From: Ectocarpus siliculosus
Lineage: Eukaryota > Sar > Phaeophyceae > Ectocarpales > Ectocarpaceae
Length of the DNA: 25,410 nucleotides
Assembly: GCA_000310025.1 (NCBI GenBank)
Contig: FN649731.1
Span: 1,679,831-1,705,240 of the forward strand
Direction of reading: 5' to 3'
The position numbers and the translations under genes were made by a program. The notes under the pieces are model-generated. The model was given only the letters and a program-made list of their open reading frames with translations, was not told the origin of the DNA and ran no database searches. Positions 1-25,410 of this stretch are shown one piece after another (the stretch's first letter is position 1; every line of letters begins with the position of its first letter).

Positions 1-360
1 TCCGGGACCCACTTTTAACCAAAAAACAGCCCGGATTTTCCCCCGTTGGGGGTAAAATTACGGGGGGGGGAAATTTGTTTTAGAAAGGGAGGAAACGGGG
101 GTTCCCCCATCCCCCCCCGGTTAACCCGCCCCCCCCCCCCCGGGGGCTTTTTTTCGGGAATTTTTTGGGGGGGGGTTTTTTCAAGGGCCCGCCCCCCCCT
201 GGAAGGCGGGCGGTTTTTGCCCCAGGGGGGGGATTTCCCGAGCGGGGGGCCCTTGCGGAATACCTTGGGTTTTCTCACAGGGTGGATTTTTTGGGGGGAA
301 AAGCCCCGACCCGGGGTTTTTTGGCGGCCAAGGGGGGGGGGGGGGGGGGGCAACGGCAAC
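1..360. other. Low-quality contig end (homopolymer-stretched)
   Basis: The sequence is a succession of stretched single-base runs, mostly G, C and T, ending in a run of about 17 G near 340. Normal-looking sequence starts after about 360. This is typical of an unreliable read end. Reading frames across it, on either strand, rich in Pro, Gly and Lys, follow from the base runs and should not be treated as genes. Confidence 0.85.
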
Positions 361-748
361 CAAATTACCGGTCCCGCGTCCTCTGTAGAGCTCTGGACCC
401 GGAGCCCATTTGGCACAGTACGCCGGGGCGTCTTTCGTTTTTTGGATGTAGTGACGTTGTGGGATACGCATCGTTTGTGAGGTCCGAGGTCGTTGGTTGG
501 CTGAGTGATAAGGGTAACACCCGAGACTGCGGCAGAAGAGGCGGACGTCTGCGAAGGCCCTACGAGGTGTATTCGCACGTTTCTTCCATGGGAGAAGTTT
601 GCGTGTCGATCGAAAGTTGCTCTCGTAGTGTATCCTGGATTTCTGGCCGTGCCTGTTTCTCTCGGATTCTTACTTGTTTCTGTTCCAGGCAAGAGGACCC
701 ACGGTTCTCCTGTCATCACTTACAGTACCCGCCTGCGTTCGTTCGTTC
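361..748. other. 3' flank with no recognisable gene
   Basis: This stretch lies between the low-quality end and the stop codon of the minus-strand gene at 749. It probably holds that gene's 3' UTR and downstream flank. I see no RNA gene, repeat or protein similarity. Confidence 0.5.
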
Positions 749-3392
749 TTACATGCCGTAGTCTTCGTAGCCGACCCCCCGCAGAAAGTCCACCGGTAGC
801 TCCGCCATATCCCTCTCCACCTGATACATAATAACAACAACAGCAGAGATACATACAGGGGTGTCGTCGTAGACGAGCCAGGGTGCTAACCGCCAGGTTG
901 TGCTCCAAAGCAAAATCAGCAGCGAAAGGAGGGCCCAATAATCGACACACGAGGAAAAGAACTGATAGATATTGGCGAGCCGCTGGGCTGTGACGCAACG
1001 TTGTGTTCCAAAGCAACTCCAGCACACGGATGAAATAATCAACAAGGAAGGGTGGGTAGACACACACGCACATGATCTGCACAGAATGATACGCAAGCTC
1101 AAGATTTTCATTCTTGGGATGATAACATTTCCCCGAGGAAAAAGGAAAATGACAGGGTGGTGAGCGTCGAAAGCAGTCACGCGCCCGTAGGTTTCCGTCA
1201 TTGTCTAGCATCAACTGCCCAATCCTCTCTCAAGGGGTGAGTTGGGAGCTATTGTGCGTGAGGCCAAGCAGCCTTGGGTGTATTCTGCTTCTGCTCGTTT
1301 GGCGCGTAATACTTCGTGTGTGGTGATGACATACATAGCGTCCAGAACTGCCGGCTCGATATTCCATCTAAACTCGTGGCATGCTTTATGCACTTTCAAG
1401 GCAGGGTTGGGTCTGCCTTCTAAATCCACAGTGCGAAGTGCGGCAAGATGGGTGTGCATAAGGGGATACCCTGGCGAAGCACGCCTTCCTGTTCGTTGTA
1501 CGACAAGGCCGACCGCCTCATGCTTCTCCCTCATCCGCTACACGTACACCGATGCATGTGACTCTGAAACGTGCCAACCCTTTTTACGTTTGTCGTGGTA
1601 CGTGTTTGGCGATTTGGCAGCAGCACCTCGAAAAGGCTTGGAAGGGGACTGCTTCGAGTTGCTGTCAGACGTTCCGGAGCGCCGTGTACCTGCAGCATAA
1701 CAATCAATCAGCCTCTACACACCTTGTACGCCTGGCTCACAATTTGTTTTTCCCCGTTCGCTTCAAGCGAATCAACCCCCTGCAGAATGTAGAAGCGAAG
1801 TGGCAGCTCAACCACGCTACTTCGGCAGTCTCTTTATCGTTTGCAAAAAGTGCGTGTTCGACTACGCCCTGAGGCGACCATGAAGATCCTACACGTCCAC
1901 CTGGCTCCCTCACCGTGTACATGACTCGTAGGTGGGCCAGACGCTCCCGCCGGACCTGCTCTTCGTAGGTCACCGGGCTCTCCATGGCCGCATTCATCAA
2001 GGCCTCTAGCTTTGTCATCCGTTCCGCCGCCTTTGCCGCCGCTCTCGCTACGGCACTGTTGCTTGCCCCTTGCCTCCAACATGTGGTGCCGCCACCGCCG
2101 GGCACGTCTTCCGACAAGCCCGCCCCGACCCTGGTACTACTCCTCGCTTGCTTGTTGCCGCCAGCGCCGCTGCCTCCACCAACAGTCCGCTTTGCCCCGT
2201 TTTTTTTCACGGCCATGGTCTCCTTTTTTGTGGCCGCGGCGCTCGTTGGCAAGATGGGCGGGGCAAGGTTGTTGTTCGAATATGCAGCCATGATCCCGTC
2301 GAGTCGCTGAGACGACAAGAGCTTGCCGCCTGCCTTTTGAGGTTTTGTCCTGCCTACGCGCTTCTTTCCGTTTGGGTCCGCCGGTTTTTGGTGAGCTCCT
2401 TTTCTTAAACGTTGTTGCTGTTGTTGTTGGTGATGCTGCTGCGTAGACTGTCGCTCCTCCCTCGTAGAAGCCCCGCCGTCGTGGGAGCTTTGGACCTCCT
2501 GCTGCACCGAAGTCGAAGTAGTGGCGGTATTTTCTTCAGGCGATTCTGCGCTCATGAGAAACGATGTTGGGCCAGGAATCTGAAAACTGCCGAAGCTATC
2601 CTTAGATGGTTGGAGCGGCCTGGTGGAAGCTGGCGGGTTGCCAAATGACGCGTCAATTCCATCAACTGCCATCTCCTCTGCCACCCCTTCCTCTTTTCTA
2701 TCGTGCGAGACAACCACGGGAGCCGCTCCGTCGAGCCTTGATTCTTCATGAAGCGAGGAAGAAGAAACGTCGGTGGTATACAGTCCTTGGCTGTTCTCGT
2801 CATCCGAAGGGTGGGCTGAAGAGAACGCCTGACCTCCTCCGTTCGTGCCCATCACGTCAACATCAGGCGAGCGCTCGGAATCTATACTACCGGTGCCAGG
2901 AAGAATCTTCATGGCAGGGATCTCAAAGCTGTCTGTAGGCTTGCACGTCTTTGTCACGCCTTGCTGCTGCGACCGCTGCTGCTTGTCAAGACCAACAGCT
3001 GTGATGCTTGTATTCCGGCCGGTTTGCCCTGGCTGCTCCGGCCCCTTCGGATTTTTCCGCGGGGCCGTCTTCTGGCTCACACCAGCATGAGCCCGCTTGC
3101 GAGAAATACCACCAACCGCCAACAAAGGGTGCTGCTGCCGAACCCCGAACAACCCGGCATTCTTCGTGCCCACGGGCACCTCTAACGTGTCCGCAGTCGA
3201 AAGCGTCACGGGTGGGGGCCCTGTGGATGGAGTAGCAGCAGCGGCTGCGGCAGCACCCAAGAAGCACCCGGCCGTGATGCTGTTGCCCCCGGTGCTGTCG
3301 AAACGTGATGGCGGTGGCCCTGCTAAGGATGAACGGTCTCGTGCAGGGGTGGTAGGGGCACCTTTCCCGGCGGCCTCAAGCAAAGAGTACAT
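749..3392 (-). CDS. Unknown protein, long disordered region plus C-terminal helices (two exons)
   Basis: Exon 1 runs 3392-1914 (493 codons from ATG at 3392). It ends at a GTGAGG donor immediately after ...HLRVMYT. Exon 2 runs 820-749: a TATCAG acceptor is followed by 23 residues (VERDMAELPVDFLRGVG..., ending YEDYGM) and TAA. Both sides are phase 0, giving 516 aa with one 1.09 kb intron. Residues 1-440 look disordered: Ala run near 45, Gln/His-rich tract near 315-330, basic KKRVGRTK-like stretch near 340-355, Ser/Gly/Pro throughout. Residues ~445-516 look helical and charged (KLEALMNAAMESPVTYEEQ, then RRERLAHLRVMYTVERDM). I do not recognise a domain. The basic patches and low complexity would suit a nuclear or scaffold protein, but that is inference. 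Reading through the donor would give a 551-aa form ending at 1737, with a low-complexity tail. The splice is preferred because exon 2 continues the helix naturally. Confidence 0.7.
2405..2450 (-). repeat. Gln/His codon repeat inside the disordered protein
   Basis: On the minus strand this is a CAG/CAA/CAC-rich tract encoding a run of about six Gln preceded by His and Gln. It is a coding trinucleotide-type repeat and may vary in length between strains. Confidence 0.7.
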
Positions 3393-5800
3393 GATGAAAG
3401 CTCAAGGGAAATGTTGTACGCCTACAATGTACACGTCGTTTGCTTTCGCGAGAGCCTCAAGCCCCTTGTGACGACAGATACCGCCGCCTCGTCAGCGCTG
3501 GCAGCGCCGGAGCCTGGGACTTGTTTCGAATTTCGGTTGAGCGTGAGGGAAGCAGACATGCCCCTGAAGCAGATGCATCTGTCCCATCGCCATGCCACAG
3601 CAATAGCGCAGCAGCAGCAGTGACACATGTTTACGGGAGCACCTTTGATTACATACGCGGCGGCGGCGGAATTAGCCAACCCGAAACGACACATTGGCGT
3701 GGTTCATGGTTCCCGTTCCCTTCTGGCTTCTGGGGAGGAGGAGCAAAAAAAAAATGTCATGCGCATGTCCATGTACATGCAGCCACTCGCACTTCGGTCT
3801 GATACCTTGATACGCACCAATGCGCACAGTATGGTTGGCCGCCGACTCAGCCCTGTCTAGTCTCCAGCACAACCCACGATTACTCTTCTGTACTTTGTGT
3901 GTTGTGTTTTCGTCCAATCTATTCCAGAGGCGCGAATCTTGACAATCTTGCGCAGTGCGGTGCATGAATGTTTTTTGACGCACCCGCTGAGCCGATGCCA
4001 CCCTGGAGTTTATTTTGTGTCTCCTTGCTTCCCCTGCGGTGATGCTTTCGTGCGGTGCTTACAACGTAATCTTTTTTACGAGGAGGTTTCTGCAGGTCCT
4101 CCCTCATCTCGTGTTACTCACGATCGCACGCTTTTCCCGCATTGATTTTTTTTCACTCCAGAGAGATTTGAACCCGCAATCTAGAGAGTCGGAAGGGTAC
4201 GAGGATTCACCACCGGGGCCACCCATCAATATAGTTTTGCCTCAATAAATCAGTCATGAACGCACATGCATACCATTGAGGAAAGTCTCGTGTGCCTGCT
4301 TTAGATGTAGGATATTGTCACAACCAATTCAAACGGTGACGACGCACAGCAGTTCATGTCACACCGCCTTTACTACACACACGCGCGAGGGCAACATGGT
4401 TGACTTTCGTCGGCGGTAGGTGGGGCAAGTGAACAGCAAACCAGGGGCAAACACTTTTTCAGCGAGCGTTGCTCGTTGGACCCCGGATGGTTGTCATAGA
4501 CGCACGCACGAGCGGCAACGTCCAACAACGCACGCACGCACGCACGGAGAGCACAACAGAATCGTGCAACCAAACTTGTGTGAGATTCATCACGCTGTCA
4601 AAAAGAGAGTTTTGTCACAAAAGGAACTCGACAAAGAAAGGTTCCACTGTCTTGTTCGAAGTTGCTCTTGGACAAACCAGAGAACAAGTGTTGTACCTGA
4701 CGGTTTGCGAAAACCATTAACGGATGGCGCATCTAAAAAGCCCACACGCAATTAGTGGCAACCACCCTGTGGCAAATGCTACCGTATACGTGCCGACATC
4801 TATGGGGTGTGCAAACATGCCTGTTCGAATCCTTTCAAGAACAGTCAAGCGCGTGCGTCCAAAAACAACAATACGAACTAAAAAACCTTGCAAAGAGAAA
4901 GGACGCAGGGATCGGGGCGTGTTCCCAGCTGCTAGTCTGCAGGGCCACCGATGGTCCAAACGACTACTTCGAGCGCCTGTTCGTAGCGAGATAATACATC
5001 AGAAAAACAAAGTGGCTGCAGCACTTTGGTTTTCCGAATCACGGTTAGTACGGGAAACAATAAACTCTCACGCTGGACGTGCACGCACAAACTTCAACGC
5101 TTCGACCGCCACCACAAAGGCAATACCCGATCTAGCCGACTGGTCCAAAGGGCGCACAAGTCTCCCGAGAGGTATCCACAACCAACAACACAATCCATGT
5201 GCTATGTGCTCATTTGTCGATTGTGGAGTAAGGCGGAGCAGCACAACGTACGGTGGCGTTTCTGCCCCCCTCCCCGAGCATCCCCTGTCCCAACCCGCCT
5301 CCCGAAAGCGGCATGATAGCAGGCCACAAGAAGCCGTCGTTTTCACAACGTCCACGATGTGATGCGAACAGGACCTCAGGCCCAGAGGCAGCCAAACGTC
5401 ATGTCCGGTTACTAAATTAGCCCTGCGCATCGAAGTGTCCGGGACAACAACAAAAATTGAGGAAAGGCGGCCAGGGTTACAGCATATTCACAGGCAGGGG
5501 TACGAAAGAGCGAGGACACGGTAGGGAGAAGGGGGGGGGGGGGGAGTGGACAACCCACGTGAGTCTTTCTGTAAAAAAGCGCTTCAGATGTGTGCATAGA
5601 CCCTGAACGTAGACTAGCGAGTGCCCAATTGACGACTTGGGAGTGTTTCAGCATTACCTACCCACGGCATCTGGTTAGTAGCAGTTCGTATAAACAAACC
5701 AACAGAATCCAGCCAAATACTGCCCCCCAAGTCTTACCACAAGCGCGACGCGGCTTTTTGCAACGGGCATGCACAAGTCTCCCAGAGCCCGCCCCCCGTG
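3393..5800. other. Intergenic region between two minus-strand genes
   Basis: About 2.4 kb between the start of the disordered-protein gene and the 3' end of the LHCR gene. It includes short simple repeats (GCA units near 3608-3621, GCGGCGGCGG near 3658, GCAC units near 4527-4546, a G14 run near 5531-5544) and a tRNA-like element at about 4150-4232. A 212-codon plus-strand frame at 4724-5362 has no domain, membrane segment or GC3 bias and is not called as a gene. The left part should contain the promoter of the 3392 gene, but no TATA-like element is convincing. Confidence 0.5.
4150..4232 (-). other. Degenerate tRNA-like element with A-tail
   Basis: On the minus strand, an A-box-like TGGCCCCGGTGG is followed about 40 bases later by a good B-box/T-loop, GCGGGTTCAAATCTCTC. 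Eight A follow soon after. The A box has C where the conserved A14 should be, the T stem has a mismatch, and I cannot pair a seven-base acceptor stem. A functional tRNA is therefore unlikely. A tRNA pseudogene or a short tRNA-derived SINE fits better. The hexamers ATTGAT and ATCAAT flank it as an inverted, not direct, pair, so there is no clear target-site duplication. Confidence 0.4.
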
Positions 5801-6146
5801 GCCCGTTGCTCACTACGCAATCCTGAAATCATGCTGGAAGGTGGACAAAACCACTTCTTCCGCGACGAGCGTCTTTGCGGTAGAACTACCATAAACGAAA
5901 CATTGATTCGGGCGACGAAAAAAAAAAAAATACACGCAGTGTCGAGATACCACAACATCACAGCAAAGGATGGAATACACGTCCACGCTGCAGGCAGACT
6001 CCCTAGATCTACAAAAAAAAAAATATATGGTATTTCGCAATTGATAGGCGGCAACGTACCGAGTAAAGCTTCCCCGAAAAAGCTCCTCGGCTCATCGAAA
6101 AGAAACAAAAAAAACAAGCGCACAAAAAAAAAAAAAAAACACTCAC

Positions 6147-9100
6147 GAAGAGGTTGTCCATCGCTCCCCCGTCGGTGGTGAGGCCCTGCATGATCATCCC
6201 CGCCGCCGCCCACATGGCCAAGCGGCCGTTCTTGATCTCCTGCAGCTCGAGCTTGGCCTTCTTCTCTGGGTTCTTGTCGAGCTTGAGGGGGTCGATGCCG
6301 AAGTCTCCCGGTGCCCGGTCCCCCGACTCCTGGCCCAACGACGTGGCGATTCCCGAGATGACTGTTTTTGAGCAGTAGTCAAATTCCCAGTAAATCGGTT
6401 CGCGGGGAGGGGGGGGATAGCAGGGAGGCGCGGAAGGAAAGGAAGGGGGGCGGTTCGTTAATCTTTCGTGTAGGACGGGCCCTCCAGGAGTCGCGGGACG
6501 CGGTTGTGTTGATAGAGAGATTTTGCATGCATGATGTCTGCGTTCCGATATATCCAATGAGCGATCTATAGCTGCGTAGGCCGCCTCTTCCGTCGTCTGT
6601 AAGCATACACGAAACGCCGACCTACTTCTCCAAAGCGGGCATCCCAAATACGAAACACTTGTAGCACATGTTTCGACTTGCCAGAGGGGGACTGCATCTT
6701 TGCTGGCCGCCTCCCCCCGTGCCAGCTGCTTCTTCGGATTTGGGATATATGGGCGTGACTGCTATTTTTGCGTCCTATTTGTTTGTTTTGATTCTGTGGC
6801 ACCTCGCCCTACCACGGCGCGTGCGCTGTTCGTACCCAGGAAGTGTCGAGAGAGGGTGCCTCAACAGCAGCGAGAGCGATCGCACCGCACCTAGACCGTC
6901 TTTCAAAGCTCGACTAAATACTCCACAACAGCGAACGAGGGTGCGAGAGCCGACCGATACGAGGCAGAAAAGTTCTTACATTTTTGAAAGACGACATTTT
7001 TCTACGACATCATTCCAGTACCACCCTTGTCGGCACTGGCAGACACGCTCTCTTGGTTTTGGAGCAGCATCGAGCAATGGAACTCAGCCTGGAAGGCGTG
7101 CGATCCTTCGCCTTTCTATGGTACACCCCCCCACAATGGGGCCCTAACCCCCACCATCAGACGCGACACCGTCTTGCTAACCCGAAACCAATCATGCATG
7201 GAAGAGTACGGACTGATGCCCTTCCCCCGCCATCCAAAGTTCTCTACTCCGGTATGGAAGCCATAAAAACCCCGTTACTCTGCTTTCAACCCCGGGACGG
7301 GGTTGGAACAACGGGATATCCCGGTTATTAAGGAGTGGATACAAGCGACAACAAAAACCGACGAATATTTGGTGCGAAGCTTTCGCGTGCCAGCCCTGTT
7401 GTCCCCTCCCTCTACCTTACGATTCTTATGCTTCCAAGCAAACCGGACCAATGCCGAACCTTGGTTGACGGCTTCCAACACGCAAACCAGAGTTTTGAGG
7501 ACTCAAACTCGAAGCCCTAGGCGAGACCTTACACAAACTTTGACTCCTTGTGCACTTCTCCTCCCCCAAGTTTAGCGACGATGCTGCTGCTGCTGCCGCA
7601 AGACGACCTTCGCGTGGGTCCACACAACCACAAACCATTAACAGCAACCCACACACACCTCACTCGACTGCTTCAAAACCATCTCGGCTCTCTTAACAAA
7701 AACGAAAAACTGCCTGCCTACTTGACAAGTGAATATCGACACACACACTAATACATGCTGCTTTTGAGCTAAAAACTCACTTTCGGCGATGCCGCAGAAG
7801 ATGATCCCGGCCGCAACGTACTGGGGCTTCTCCGCCCACACCTCCCAGAAGAGCTTCATCTGGTTCACGCCCGAGGGGAAGCCCGGCAGGGAGCCGAAGG
7901 CGTCGCACCAGAGCACGCCCACAGTTGCGAGCATGGCAACGCGCCCGTGCTTGAGCTCCGCCTCGCGCATCCAGTACAGGTCCGCGCCCGCGAGCCCGGC
8001 GATGCTGGAGAGGCCGAGCGGGTCGAAGCCGACGTCGCCGGCCATGGAGCCGTCCAGCTAGAGGGGGGGAAGGCGTTTTTTTTGTTTGTTTTTGTTCCCG
8101 CCCCGTTCATGTAGATTTCGCATCCAGTAGATGTTATAGGAAACACACCGCCGTTGTGTGTAAGAAGTCCAGGCAAGCACACGCACGTTTCGCGCGTCGG
8201 TGTGTGTTGAAATTGTGGTTTTCGCCACGTGAAACAGGCACAGATCCATTGTCCGGTTTTTCCCGGGAACCCAGTGCGCATAAGAGTACACGGCGGATCA
8301 GTCCCCCCCCCGCCAAGGCGCACGGGAAATAAAAGCCGGTGTGGCAGGTGAACGCGCCGCCAGCGGCGGAGCCCAACGCAGTCCATGATGTCAACGAGTA
8401 GCAAGAAGACGATAGGCGAGAGGGGACGGCGCAAGAAAAAAACAAGGAAGGAGATGTGAAAAAAACAGGTTAGAAAACAACCGCGCACGCGTATGCACAT
8501 GACTTGCTGCTGATTTTTGGATGTGGGGAAACAGGTGGATGGGGTTGTGCACGCTTCAAGGGGGGGGGGGGGGGGGGCAAGCGCATGCACGCCATCAACT
8601 GTTGCCGTAAAATCCGTCCAGGAGGGTGTCGGCAGATTGGGACTGGTGCGAGAGAAAACCGATTTCAAGTTTCTTTTGTCTGGACTGCCCGTTATAGGTG
8701 GGCAAGAGGGCGGAACATCATGCACCAACAATGACCCTGTGGCATTCCCTTTTGGTGGTTAGGCAGCTCGATAGATTCCCGCTTGGAGCATTTGTACGTA
8801 CGGCTTGAGGTTGCCGGTTTCGTGCGCAGCAGACAGGCGTCGAAAAAATATTCATCCATGTAGGATACGCGATGACAAAATAGACCAATCAGAGCATGGG
8901 GATCTCGTTCTGCGTATTTCGTGTTCCAGCTTTGCCATACAAGCGCTTCGTCGGCAGCGCATGACACCAACGCCAACGTCTTTCTCAAGAGGGTTGGTCA
9001 CCAACAAGTAACGGACACAACTAAAAGGGGTGCCGCGGCAGCACACCTCCGCCACAATCGTTGGGGAAACGTATCAGGCCGGTTGAGAGTCTCATCGTAT

Positions 9101-10741: not shown

Positions 10742-13700
10742 ATGGCGAGGTCGAGGACGAGGACGAGCTCGACGCGGAGAACAAGAAGCACTGCTGTCGG
10801 TCTCCCCTCCTTGTTGACTTTTCTGGTCTCGTGCACATGGAGAACAACAGCAATAGGTATGCATGCATGTTATTGCTTCTAAAAGTTATGGGCTACAAGC
10901 AAGGCGTTGCATGCACTCCAAGTATGTGTTTGTATTTGTATGCACAGAAGCAGCACAAATAATACATGTAGTCGGCCTGCGTGCTGAAGTGCCATTGCCC
11001 TATGTAGAGCTCCAAGGGTGTCCAGAGACACAGTACGACTGACTGTGGACGGTTCTGTTATGTATTTGCGGGGTGTTCCATCAAACTCATGGGGTACATG
11101 CGTGATAACAAGAACAATGCCCTCCCATGCCCTCCCTACAGTTGTAGTTCTTGCAAGCGTGCGACTCGATAGTCATGTAAGCCTCCTTCATGGCTGAACC
11201 TGTTTCGGCTGCACGGGTTACTTCTTTTGTTGGCCGAGCAGAGAGAGAGTGCCCCAACGGGCTGGTGAATGAGTACCACATTGACTACAGATGCGCATTG
11301 CTACTCTTTAGCACCCAGCTTCATGATGACACCTCAACCTCTGGCTCAGATGGAACTTCATCTGCAGGCTACAAAATGAGGGGGTGAAGGACAAGTAACG
11401 TATTTCCGTGGCAAGTGTACCTGTGTCCTGGTAGCGCCAACCCAAACATTGTGAAGTTTGTCTACACACTATGTCTACAACCACACGTTATGTCGCCCTC
11501 TCTGTATCCTTGCTCCACTGCATCGCGCGGATGTCACTGCACCAGCTCCGCTAGCTTTGCATCAAGTGGTTTCTGTGTCTCCCGGGGGAGAAGCAGTGAT
11601 TCGCTTGTCTGGCTACGACTTAGACGGGGACGATCTCGTTGCCACCATATCGTCTTTGCCGGAATCGGGTACCCTTCACCAGGTAGGCCATCGACGGCAC
11701 CGCCTATGACAAGGCTCTGTATGTCTACGTTGATGCGTCGAATAGCACGAGATTCTCCGTCCCTGATATGCTGGTCGAACTCTGTTCGATTTGTCCGTGA
11801 AGCTGCTCCCTCTCGTATTCCATGTTGCAACCCTCTATGCCAACTTTGCACATCATGGTCGGGTGACCAACAAAATACATTCCTTATTCGCTTCCTGCTA
11901 TCAAAGCACCAAATATTGTGCTAGTAAGGCGGGGGCACTGGCCTAGGCGGCCGCTGTCAAAAATGGAGCAGCTGACGTCTTTCGTCGGTGTACCTAACAA
12001 ATGAGCAGCTCTTGGGGCCCGTGTACCACCTCCACGAAGCCATCGTACGTACTGGCCAGCCTCTATAATCACGTGCGAAAATAATAGCGGAGCAGTTTTT
12101 TACATTGTTGCTTGCAAAGCGTATCCATTTCGTGCTGACCACGCACATCACCATTGCTCGCGTCGACCACGTCATCCTCGTAGCTTTCCAAGGTGTACTC
12201 TGAGTACGGGTACGACCCAGCAGCAGGCGAGGTTATCGCTGGAAGTGGTGGCGTTGAAGTGACCGGTTCAGGCAATCGTGTGGTGTACAAGAGACCGGCG
12301 GCGGATGCTGAGCCAACTGGGCGATGGGGAAGGTATGTAGGTGACCCCAACTTCCAACAGCAGTGCCAGAACCTGAGAGGAGATGCGGGGATCCTTTCGC
12401 TGCACGCGCGACGAACGCCTTCCGCGTGTGTCCCCGATTGGTTGTGCCTACACCGTTCTTTCTTGCGGACGAGAAACGGATTGCTCGAATTTCGAAATTT
12501 CCACTATTCTATCCTACAGCAGGACAAGATATTCAGTTCATATTTTTGACTAACGTCGTCCGTGAGCGCCGTGACCGTGCCACCAACGCCGCAGTGTCAG
12601 GCAGAACAGTATCGAACCTATGCTCATAGGCCGTGCCGCAACACGTAGTATTGATCCTCAAACCTGACATGCCAACCTTGAGCCTAGGAAAGTGTCCTTC
12701 AATAGGCGCTAGGCTCATTCACCCTTTCTTCCCACCGTGCCCCTTCGTATTTCCGCGTCATGGCAGTTTCACTTACACCGTGTCTGACGGGAGCGACTCA
12801 GCGAAGGCCGGCACGGTGTACCTGGTGTCGGGGGGGGGGCTCCTGGAGGCTGCGGAGTTCGACTTTGGAGTCGGCACCTGGAAGGTATGATGACATGGCA
12901 ATAATAGATTTGGTGTTTTGCCATTTACGACAAACAGCGAATATTTCGGGGGCACAAGCGACCAATGAACTCGTTGCCGACGGGAGAACAAGTTATAGCA
13001 GGCAACGCCACCCCGGATATTAGAGTTGTGGTTCCAATTTTTCCGAGATGCCGTCTGACAACGCCTATTCGAAGTCTCGATATTGGAGGGGGCGCGACCG
13101 TCGCGAACAAGGCTGCTCTGCAGCTAGAAGTATGCAACATGGAACAAGGTAACAAGCGCGCGGCTTGTCCGCGCCCTAGTCAGCACCTGTCCTTTCAAGC
13201 GCGACGCGCCGCTGCTTGCTGCCGCCGCGTTGCGTGCATAGGTGTGCCAGAGCGGAGGGTCTTACTGCGAGGCGGCGAGGCACGATCCGAGCAGCAGGGG
13301 GTTGCTGAGCTTTTTCTTGTCGGGGTCGGACACGATCGTGCACTCAGACGGTGAGGGCGTCACGTACCCTTTGTTGACAATATATATTGATGAGGTTGGG
13401 ATCGTCGCGCTAAATAAAACGCGAGGAGGTGTCGAGCACGCGGCACGCGACTGTTTGTACCGAATATGTGCCCGAGACATGGAGCATCTGGTGTCTGGTG
13501 TCGTTCGAGATATAATATATTTTCGAGTGGACTCTTACGCGAGAATGCTTGCGTTGGGCGTGATATCCGTTTCCAGAATTCCGTGGAAGTGTCGGGCAAC
13601 CGGACTTCGCCGCGAGCAGAAACGCGAACACCACAGTAGTCGCCTTGAAAACAAATGGTGATTTACCGTGTTCTCTTTCGAAGTGATAGATACTTACTCG

Positions 13701-15833
13701 GGTGCATGTTTCTCGTGTTCTTTGTATTTTCTTCTTCATCAACCTCCTCTGACCCTACGAAACATCGGGGTTCCGACATCAGTGTATCCAGGGGGAGACT
13801 AAACGATATTCTGATTTCATGTTAGGGGCCTTACGAGTAACCCCTGCTCCCCTTGATCACGTGCCTGCCGCTACAATGCACATCCTTCTGCCTGCCGCTG
13901 CAATGCACATCCTGCCGATTGCGCCCCTTTTCCCGTCCGACGGACCAGCCGACGGGGTAGACGACACGCTGTGGTGGTTCAAAGCCGATTCTGCCTTTTC
14001 GGGAAACCTGGGGGTGGCGTACGCGGGGACCCTGGAGTTCTCAATCGGATCGTTCTCGGGAACCTTCTCAGAAGGTGGGTGGGTTCGTCCGCGCCGTTCT
14101 CCCCCTTGCCCATGCCGCAACAACAGCAGGCATACAAGTAGCAGCAGGGCCTTGCATGTATCCTCCGTGCGAGCCTTCCACCTTTCGCACAAAGTACTGG
14201 AAGGAGACGGAGGAAGAAGGGGGACCCTGGCAGCATGATAAGCACCAACGACAGACCGTGTTGACGCAAGACACAGCCCTAAACACACGTACCGACACAC
14301 CTAACCTGCAGCTGCTTAACCTACCCGACCCCACCCCCCCCATCTGCAGAAAACCTGAACGGCGACGCCCTCCGGTTGGTCGAGCTCTACTGCTCGGCGT
14401 GCGCGAGAAACACGGGGACGACGCTGGCCTTTCCCCTGTCCGTCGCGGGGGGGTTCGCGGGCGGGGGAACCGGGGTGTCATTCTCCATCCCCCTCTCCGA
14501 GACGGGGGGGTGGCTGAAGGACCCCGAGAATACCTTGAAGCAGGTGCGAAGCGTGGTGTAGTATGCAGAGAGTGGAGGCTGGGAAAACTGCAACTTCCGG
14601 GCATTTTTCCTGTGTCGGGAAAAGATTGCTGCAGCGCGATGTACAGAGGATCGACCTGATCACGAAGGAGAAGCTAAACAGGCTCACCCTGACTGTGTCA
14701 TGTGCGGCAAACGTCGAGCGTCTGTCCTCAACTCTTTGTCGGTTACGCTTTGCCGCCTGAGTTTTTTCTCGAAATTCTGCCTAGCTTTCCTCAATTTTTG
14801 TACGTTCTTGTGATCGGGCCGGTGCTGTGTACACCCTTGCTCTCTCGGCTCTCCCACTTCCGTTCGGGGAAAGCGCAGCTCGTGCATGGACTGGTGGGGA
14901 AATGGGTGACGCGTGATGGAGGTCTTGAACGAAAGAGATCGCGACAAGTACCCAATCTCTTAGACCCTATATCCCGCTTTGTTCTTGTTGAGATGCTGGG
15001 CATCACACCCGAAGAATAAAGTGCCCCCCCCCGCCCCTCCGCTCCCCCCTCCCCATTTGGCTAAACCCCCGCGCCACAATCCAGGCCGCCCCCCCAACCA
15101 AGTGCGAGATGGCGGAGGTGCTGTCTAACCTCAGCGAGCTCCGAATACTCGGGGGTAAGTATACAGTAGTGTTCGACCGGGCCTTTCCTGCCATTTGCGG
15201 CAAAAAGCGGCTCCCGGATAGTAGTTGAGGGAAAGGGTGAAACCGTGCAGGGGAAGAACGTTCTTGAGAGGTTTCCGCTGCAGCGTGAAGGGTGGATATT
15301 GTCGGACAATGCTGTTGGCACCGCCAGTGCACCGCACCCCGTGGGCAGTCGAGCTCCTTCCCGACCTTACCGGCTGTGTGTTTCGAAGGCCAAAGCGTGT
15401 GATCATGGGCTCTCTACAACTGTAACATTGCTTGTGTTTCCAAGGACCTACATCCCAGAATCGCGAGAGGCACAATATCCAGAACGGTTCAGACTAATAG
15501 CAACATACGCGTAAAAACACACGGCGATTTCCACGGCTTACACACACATGATCCAGTACTAACTTCCCATTTTCATGTTTCAACCCCCACCCCCGTGCCT
15601 CATCGCATTCGTGTCCCGTGTTATACGAAACGGTCGAATCCCCGTCCATGGTCGTCTTCGATTCGTCAGACTTCACGAAGCGACACGAGAGTGTCGCTCT
15701 GGACTCGGTGTACATCCGGGCGGCCGGGAGTGGAACGTCTAGTGGTAGTGGAGGCCTCGGCGGCGGAATCGGCGGCAGTTCTCTCCCCGTCTGCGCTCAG
15801 GGGTCTCCGGATGCCACCGTTTGCTCGTGCTAA
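10742..15833 (+). CDS. Predicted secreted protein with cadherin-like repeat and laminin-B (domain IV) modules
   Basis: Nine exons join in phase: 10742-10856, 11546-11682, 12184-12332, 12767-12884, 13242-13350, 13949-14074, 14350-14543, 15085-15154, 15670-15833 (TAA). Total 1182 nt, 393 aa. Residues 1-39 have an Arg/Ser/Thr-rich n-region and the hydrophobic stretch AVGLPSLLTFLVSC, a likely signal peptide ending in TAIA. Residues ~40-160 form a cadherin-like/tandem repeat-type module, with SVSPGGEAVIRLSGYDLDGD, SLPESGTLHQ and GSFTYTVSDG. Residues ~160-360 match laminin B: GLLSFFLSGSD, LWWFKADSAFSGN, YAGTLEFSI, then WLKDPENTL, EMAEVLSNLSELRILGDF and ESVALDSVYI, the usual ending of that domain. 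The tail is Gly/Ser-rich with Cys at 381, 391 and 393. No transmembrane segment follows the signal peptide, so secretion to the cell wall or matrix is inferred. Exon 1 is the least certain part; its phase and leader fit. A G10 run (12830-12839) lies in coding sequence without breaking the frame. Confidence 0.85.
13862..13913 (+). repeat. Tandem 27-bp repeat, two copies, before a laminin-B gene acceptor
   Basis: Units at 13862-13886 and 13889-13913 share 24 of 25 bases (TGCCTGCCGCT, A or G, CAATGCACATCCT). They sit in the fifth intron, ending 35 bases before the acceptor at 13948, so they overlap the likely branch-point region. Confidence 0.8.
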
Positions 15834-25103: not shown

Positions 25104-25410
25104 ACCGGGGGGGGGGGGGGGGGGGGGGAAAAAAAAAAAAGGGTTTTCCCTTCTCCTCCCAGAAATGGGGAAACCCCCCCCGGGGTGGAAAAAAAGGGGA
25201 CCCCCCCCAAGGGGGGGGGCTATTAACCCCAAAACCCATCCCTTTTTCCCCCCAAACCCCAAAAAAGAAAAGGGTTTTTTCTTTGAATTTTAAGGGGAAA
25301 AGAAAACCCCCCCAAGGGGCCCCCCCCCAAAAAAAGGGGAACCCCCCCCCACCTTCCCCCCCCCCAAAAGGGGGGAACCCCCCCCCCCGGGGGCCCAAAA
25401 AAACAGGGGT
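25104..25410. other. Low-quality contig end (homopolymer-stretched)
   Basis: From the G run at about 25107 to the end, almost every base is in a run of 3-20 identical bases. It mirrors the left end and is read-end noise, not biology. Frames rich in Pro, Gly, Lys and Phe here should be ignored. Confidence 0.85.

What the first reader, a model, noticed from the sequence alone, without database searches (positions are those of the whole stretch)
10742..15833. Cadherin-like module joined to a laminin-B domain in an algal secreted protein
Nine short exons, all joining in phase, give a 393-aa product with a signal peptide, one cadherin-like/tandem repeat-type module, one laminin B (domain IV) module and a Cys-ended Gly/Ser tail. 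Laminin B is best known from animal basement-membrane proteins. A small stand-alone protein with this order, without EGF-like laminin repeats or a membrane anchor, is an unusual architecture and a candidate extracellular-matrix or adhesion factor in a multicellular alga.
Basis: partly seen in the sequence, partly recalled or inferred. Interest (0 to 1): 0.7.

Follow-up and report, generated by a model that had tools for sequence, protein, structure and literature searches.

The report
Algal Ig-like plus laminin-B protein
An intron-rich algal gene appears to make a small, probably secreted protein that joins a bacterial-type Ig-like module to a laminin-B (L4) module; that module is not confined to animals but also occurs in scattered bacteria, and here it may help grip matrix sugars.

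Summary
Nine GT-AG exons (10742-15833, +) join in phase into exactly 393 aa. The product passes Pfam's cut-offs for Big_9 (28.9 bits, aa 39-152) and, narrowly, Laminin_B (23.1 against 22.4, aa 220-361). A profile from 52 bacterial laminin-B segments scores it at 55.2 bits, against at most 8.5 for 2000 shuffles.

The interpretation needs correcting. The N-terminal module is Big_9; Cadherin_5 is below its cut-off. Laminin-B is not an animal speciality: a motif scan found it in bacteria (52 of 56 loci kept, all 52 confirmed by Pfam), and 37 of 38 rows used in a tree fall in 11 phyla. One bacterial protein, L027, has the same order, Big_9 directly before Laminin_B. A bacterial stand-in folds at pLDDT 93.7 and matches perlecan and laminin-alpha2 L4 first, carbohydrate-binding modules more weakly.

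Best reading: a small secreted matrix protein whose L4 domain works like a CBM on wall polysaccharide, the Ig-like module as spacer. Homology is shown; secretion and sugar binding are inferred. First exon and gene ends are unproven. L4 function in laminins is unknown, so a one-module homologue could help test it.

The parts
10742..10856 (+). exon 1 (aa 1-39): basic start and hydrophobic stretch, candidate signal peptide; weakest exon
   Evidence: one of 37 possible openings
11546..11682 (+). exon 2 (aa 39-84), first part of the Big_9 module
12184..12332 (+). exon 3 (aa 85-134), Big_9 module
12767..12884 (+). exon 4 (aa 134-173), end of Big_9 and start of the longer L4 domain (AEFDFGVGTWK)
13242..13350 (+). 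exon 5 (aa 174-210), N-terminal part of the L4 domain
   Evidence: junctions not settled by the profile
13949..14074 (+). exon 6 (aa 210-252), Laminin_B core DDTLWWFKADSAFSGN
14350..14543 (+). exon 7 (aa 252-316), Laminin_B core
15085..15154 (+). exon 8 (aa 317-340), Laminin_B, MAEVLSNLSELRILG
   Evidence: both its junctions rank first
15670..15833 (+). exon 9 (aa 340-393 and stop), end of Laminin_B, Gly/Ser tail with three Cys
10856..12821 (+). Big_9 (PF17963) match, aa 39-152, introns included
   Evidence: 28.9 bits
13978..15734 (+). Laminin_B (PF00052) match, aa 220-361, introns included
   Evidence: 23.1 bits, 55.2 bits with the bacterial profile

Best explanation
A spliced algal gene for a small extracellular protein: a candidate signal peptide, one Big_9 Ig-like module, one laminin-B/L4 module and a flexible Gly/Ser tail with cysteines. 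Shown: the open spliced frame, the two domain families and their order, and homology of the second module to bacterial laminin-B domains and, through them, to the L4 domains of perlecan and laminin. Inferred: the L4 module is a CBM-like beta-sandwich that holds a polysaccharide or glycoprotein of the algal wall or matrix, the Ig-like module is a spacer or second contact, and the cysteines form disulphides that stabilise or link the protein in the matrix. The architecture looks like a small member of a pool of modular surface proteins that bacteria also use, rather than a piece of an animal basement membrane. I put the domain assignment at about 0.95, secretion at about 0.7, and sugar binding by the L4 module at about 0.4.
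For: Nine-exon frame of 393 aa. Pfam Big_9 and Laminin_B over cut-off. 55.2 bits with the bacterial profile against at most 8.5 in 2000 shuffles. Five positions (F, W, A, F, G) invariant in the alignment of the algal domain with 38 bacterial ones. The bacterial protein L027 has Big_9 (48.6 bits, about aa 715-803) directly before its laminin-B domain, which starts near aa 814. A profile of 38 bacterial domains finds perlecan (2.7e-14) and laminin alpha-2 (1.1e-10) in the PDB. The bacterial stand-in L018 models at pLDDT 93.7; Foldseek puts perlecan and laminin L4 first (E 4.7e-11 to 1.4e-9), then CBM11, CBM30, CBM22 and exo-beta-agarase entries. The CASP11 article places L4 in a beta-sandwich class shared with CBMs (PMC4834066, passages).
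Against: No ligand, expression or localisation data. The CBM likeness is of fold only and weaker than the L4 likeness (TM-score over the query 0.36-0.56 for the CBM11, CBM30 and CBM22 rows against 0.65-0.68 for L4); other beta-sandwich proteins with other jobs appear in the same list. It was seen in a bacterial relative at 22% identity to the algal domain (39 of 176 columns); ligand-contacting residues were not compared. The algal domain departs from the bacterial consensus (ADSAFSG for APxKFLG) and has the longest end branch of the tree (3.14), so its function may differ. The Pfam Laminin_B score is only just over the cut-off. Exon 1 is one of many possible first exons.
Confidence: 0.5

Rival explanations
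1. A protein-binding matrix or adhesion protein: the L4 and Ig-like modules hold other proteins, as a laminin-like or cadherin-like adhesion factor, rather than sugars.
For: The same fold search lists a MAM-bearing protein (8a28, E 5.7e-5) among the CBMs, and the title of Moran et al. 2015 (seen only in the reference lists of PMC4834066 and PMC6744579) compares L4 with adhesion modules of ephrin receptors. The function of L4 in laminins is called unknown (PMC6744579, passages).
Against: No partner is known, and a review says that brown algae lack collagen, fibronectin and vitronectin (PMC8307928, passages). Cadherin_5 is below cut-off and no other cadherin family was listed.
Confidence: 0.25
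2. The model is a fragment of a larger protein: further exons upstream (more Ig-like modules, another signal peptide) or downstream (a membrane anchor) belong to it.
For: Exon 1 is one of 37 possible openings; the bacterial relative L027 is a large protein with four Big_9 stretches.
Against: A home-made Big_9 profile finds no further good copy in the window (best 6.3 bits, at exon 4 itself), but that profile is weak: it gives the exon 2 piece only 1.7 bits. The frame closes with a stop at 15831-15833. Regions downstream were not searched for further exons beyond these profile scans and ten Pfam-scanned open frames.
Confidence: 0.2
3. A decaying or non-expressed gene.
For: No expression data here; the algal laminin-B branch is very long.
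Against: All nine exons are open over 393 codons with GT-AG borders, and GC3 is 72% against 53% GC in introns.
Confidence: 0.07

Closest known systems
Bacterial laminin-B (PF00052) proteins, above all L027 (MAG, 'bacterium isolate new MAG-300')
   Same: Same L4-type domain with the FD...GW start and the VLxxLtxLxI...LDNV end; L027 also has Big_9 directly before Laminin_B.
   Different: Bacterial; L027 is at least 1683 aa with four Big_9 stretches and a Por secretion-tail match just under its cut-off (26.3 against 27); the algal protein has one of each module and introns. Best identity to one of the 38 bacterial domains is 31.7% over 186 columns.
L4 (laminin IV) domains of animal laminins and perlecan (4yep, 4yeq, 9i5a)
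   Same: Same Pfam family; the bacterial relatives match them by profile and by fold.
   [quoted passage not shown] none is here. Identity to the two PDB fragments compared is 14.4% and 17.5%.
Oomycete cadherins of Pythium ultimum (PMC2926784, passages read)
   Same: Proteins with adhesion-type repeats of animal-like names outside animals; oomycetes are stramenopiles (the alga here may be one too, untested).
   Different: Those carry cadherin EC repeats with LDRE and DxND motifs; here the module is Big_9 and lacks both.
CBM11, CBM30 and CBM22 carbohydrate-binding modules
   Same: Related beta-sandwich fold to a bacterial laminin-B stand-in (Foldseek E 1.6e-5 to 4.5e-4 for the better rows).
   Different: No such family among the Pfam matches of the algal protein; binding residues and binding not tested.

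Membership tests
Laminin_B / L4 domain (PF00052) | profile score over the curated cut-off | tested here: met
   23.1 bits against 22.4 for the full protein; a trial piece with a wrong exon 8/9 join scored 17.8; bacterial profile 55.2 bits
Laminin_B / L4 domain (PF00052) | L4 beta-sandwich fold | tested here: inconclusive
Laminin (protein family) | laminin EGF-like repeats, LN and coiled-coil domains | tested here: not met
   no such family among the four Pfam matches listed up to E 10
Big_9 bacterial Ig domain (PF17963) | profile score over the curated cut-off | tested here: met
   28.9 bits against 23.6, profile positions 3-87 of 89
Cadherin | cadherin profile over cut-off; LDRE and DxND motifs | tested here: not met
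   Cadherin_5 11.6 against 26.5, no other cadherin family listed; neither motif present; motifs as named in PMC2926784
Carbohydrate-binding module | demonstrated sugar binding | not testable with these tools
   fold likeness only, through a bacterial stand-in
Secreted protein | signal peptide, no membrane span | tested here: inconclusive
   hydrophobic stretch from residue 19 (13-residue mean 1.89) and no span after residue 40, but exon 1 is one of 37 openings; no signal-peptide predictor on hand

The most novel reading that the evidence does not exclude
Photosynthetic eukaryotes carry small secreted proteins that pair an Ig-like module with a stand-alone L4 domain, and in them the L4 domain is a polysaccharide-binding module of the wall. 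L4 would then be an old sugar-binding domain, shared by bacteria and algae, that animals later built into laminin and perlecan, which would give a first direct lead to what L4 does in basement membranes.
Probability: 0.25. Interest if true: 0.65.

Novelty: new variant of a known kind. Interest (0 to 1): 0.42.

Why it matters
The function of L4 domains in laminins is stated as unknown in a 2019 review (PMC6744579, passages). A one-module, soluble homologue from an alga, plus short bacterial relatives, would let sugar binding by this fold be tested without a giant multidomain protein. It also warns against reading a laminin-B match outside animals as a borrowed animal gene, and it adds a candidate matrix protein in algae; for brown algae a review reports integrin-like proteins without the animal ligands collagen, fibronectin and vitronectin (PMC8307928, passages).

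Tried and rejected
Animal origin of the module: neither supported nor excluded. The tree of 38 bacterial domains, the algal one and two PDB animal fragments splits the two animal rows off (97/98, bootstrap not settled, 10 of 38 inner branches well supported), but the algal branch is very long and the AU test does not reject alga plus animals as one clade (p 0.186). On the side of an animal association: a table of an ECM-evolution paper lists Laminin_B among ECM domains (PMC4224354, passages), and laminin gamma is listed among core animal gene families (PMC6040629, passages).

Viral origin: no relative in phage records by DNA or protein; no relative of the full protein in IMG/VR; the four contigs matching an alga-like motif have short frames that do not read like laminin-B; with the bacterial motif and profiles, one 164-kb viral contig (L061/L071) carries a laminin-B-like domain. 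Plasmids gave one weak Ig-like hit (E 0.8). PHROGs gave nothing, NCBIfam only a sub-threshold tandem-95 match.

Direct PDB search with the single algal sequence found nothing; the bacterial profile reached the laminin entries, and below them only weak matches (E 0.03 to 0.5) to a streptococcal protease and a putative phage lysin, not followed.

Searches of the held open-access papers listed no paper that, by title or start of abstract, describes such an algal protein. One search listed only 40 of 28,978 papers and only 15 of 46; the other six listed everything they found. Subscription papers are not held. No paper was read whole: passages only of PMC4224354, PMC2926784, PMC4834066, PMC8307928, PMC6744579 and PMC6040629.

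Rows dropped: of 61 motif matches, 9 were dropped before the profile: the four alga-like viral matches, L009, L026 and L043 (not laminin-B-like on reading), L051 (cut by the contig end) and L061. The structure and tree used 38 of the 52 kept; 14 (near-duplicates and some others, chosen by hand) were left out. The bacterial set was picked by a laminin-B motif recalled from memory, so 52 of 52 Pfam matches says that the picks are real, not how common the domain is; the samples speak to that.

Full report
Observation. Joining nine exons with GT-AG borders on the + strand gives 393 codons and a stop. Exons are 70-194 nt and introns 275-689 nt; the CDS has GC3 72.3% against 52.6% GC in the introns. 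The neighbourhood is that of a photosynthetic organism: of ten open frames scanned, two on the minus strand match chlorophyll a/b-binding proteins (53.6 and 77.5 bits), eight match nothing. That it is a brown alga is my guess from intron style and composition, not a result.

Domains. The full protein passes the Pfam cut-offs for Big_9 (28.9 against 23.6, aa 39-152) and Laminin_B (23.1 against 22.4, aa 220-361); Cadherin_5 is far below its cut-off (11.6 against 26.5) and nothing EGF-like was listed. The Laminin_B score is marginal, so I looked for independent support. A degenerate DNA pattern for a laminin-B motif, recalled from memory, found 56 stretches in bacterial genomes. After dropping 4 of the 56, all 52 ORFs match Laminin_B at E 0.001 or better. 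A profile built from 52 segments of these scores the algal protein at 55.2 bits, its best stretch (50.8) covering aa 207-358, while 2000 shuffles reach at most 8.5. In the joint alignment five positions are invariant in all 39 rows, from F and W of the FD...GW start in exon 4 onward, and the LD.V end in exon 9 is shared by nearly all. The domain is therefore longer than Pfam's model and spans exons 4 to 9.

Splice junctions. Testing in-frame alternatives within 60 bases, the model's junction ranks first for E7/E8 (of 21) and E8/E9 (of 25), and 2nd of 31, 5th of 15 and 5th of 21 for E4/E5, E5/E6 and E6/E7; the better-scoring alternatives there gain at most 3.9 bits and some use GC donors. The junctions before exon 4 were not scored this way. 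A trial piece with a wrong exon 8/9 join scored only 17.8 bits with Pfam against 23.1 for the full model. The first exon is uncertain: 37 ATG-to-GT openings, the chosen one included, reach exon 2 in phase, and the chosen one is 6th by hydrophobic stretch.

What the laminin-B module is. A profile of 38 bacterial domains finds, in the PDB, perlecan (2.7e-14) and laminin alpha-2 (1.1e-10). The bacterial domain L018, folded with 38 sequences, models at pLDDT 93.7 and pTM 0.86. Foldseek places perlecan and laminin L4 first (4.7e-11 to 1.4e-9), then, much weaker, CBM11 (1.6e-5), a MAM protein, CBM30, CBM22 and exo-beta-agarase entries, and further down lectins and other beta-sandwich proteins. The CASP11 article says that L4 belongs to a beta-sandwich class shared with CBMs, with a surface cavity that may bind a ligand (PMC4834066, passages); a 2019 review calls L4 function unknown (PMC6744579, passages).

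Not an animal speciality. Of the 38 bacterial rows of the tree, 37 fall in 11 phyla by record title and L027 in none. The family is sporadic: 5 of 149 genomes of one phylum sample and 3 of 149 of another, each count including the centre genome, and 0 of 14 control genomes. In L027 a Big_9 module (48.6 bits, about aa 715-803) lies directly before the laminin-B domain (start near aa 814, Pfam match 858-974). Of the 52 ORFs, 3 match Big_9: L027, and L054 and L055, where it lies far after Laminin_B. So the algal order has a bacterial parallel, but a rare one: 1 of 52, in a set where some ORFs are cut by the ends of the stretch held. The algal domain is up to 31.7% identical to a bacterial one and 14.4% and 17.5% to the two animal fragments, but the tree cannot place it: its branch is 3.14 and a clade with the animals is not rejected (p 0.186). 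Whether the alga got the gene by transfer, or the domain is ancestral, is open.

Mechanism. I think it most likely that the protein is secreted and that its L4 module acts as a CBM-like binder in the algal matrix, held at a distance by the Ig-like module, with cysteines (aa 175, 182, 266, 269, 323, 381, 391, 393, besides 31 in the candidate signal peptide) forming disulphides. The frame and homology are shown; secretion, binding and disulphides are inferred. The main rival is protein binding.

Verdict. A real, correctly read gene with a modest correction: Big_9 rather than cadherin, and a laminin-B domain of a kind that bacteria also have. I call it a new variant of a known kind. Its main interest is as a simple handle on the unknown function of L4 domains.

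Noticed in passing
window 6009-8057, minus strand: Two pieces match chlorophyll a/b-binding proteins (profile positions 5-103 and 112-161), in an order that fits two exons of one light-harvesting gene.
   Followed up: partly
window 1737-3401, minus strand: A 554-aa open frame (stop to stop), rich in Gly, Ser and Gln, with no Pfam match at E 0.01.
   Followed up: partly
window 1-700 and 25200-25410: Both ends are dense in single-base runs: 284 and 754 bases per kb lie in runs of four or more, against 92 for the whole window, as in low-quality sequence at contig ends.
   Followed up: partly
L027:1645-6693 (minus): Bacterial protein with four Big_9 stretches, one directly before its Laminin_B domain, and an FlgD-type Ig match near the end.
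   Followed up: yes
L061 and L071 (IMGVR_UViG_3300035698_018280, 163,887 bases): The one viral contig found here with a laminin-B-like domain, in a large open frame.
   Followed up: partly
bacterial loci: 10 of 52 laminin-B ORFs also match a PEP-CTERM motif, 6 a CHU_C and 4 a Por secretion tail, so a good part of these bacterial domains is probably on exported proteins.
   Followed up: no
window 13862-13913: A 27-base tandem repeat, 1.9 copies, in the intron just before exon 6.
   Followed up: no
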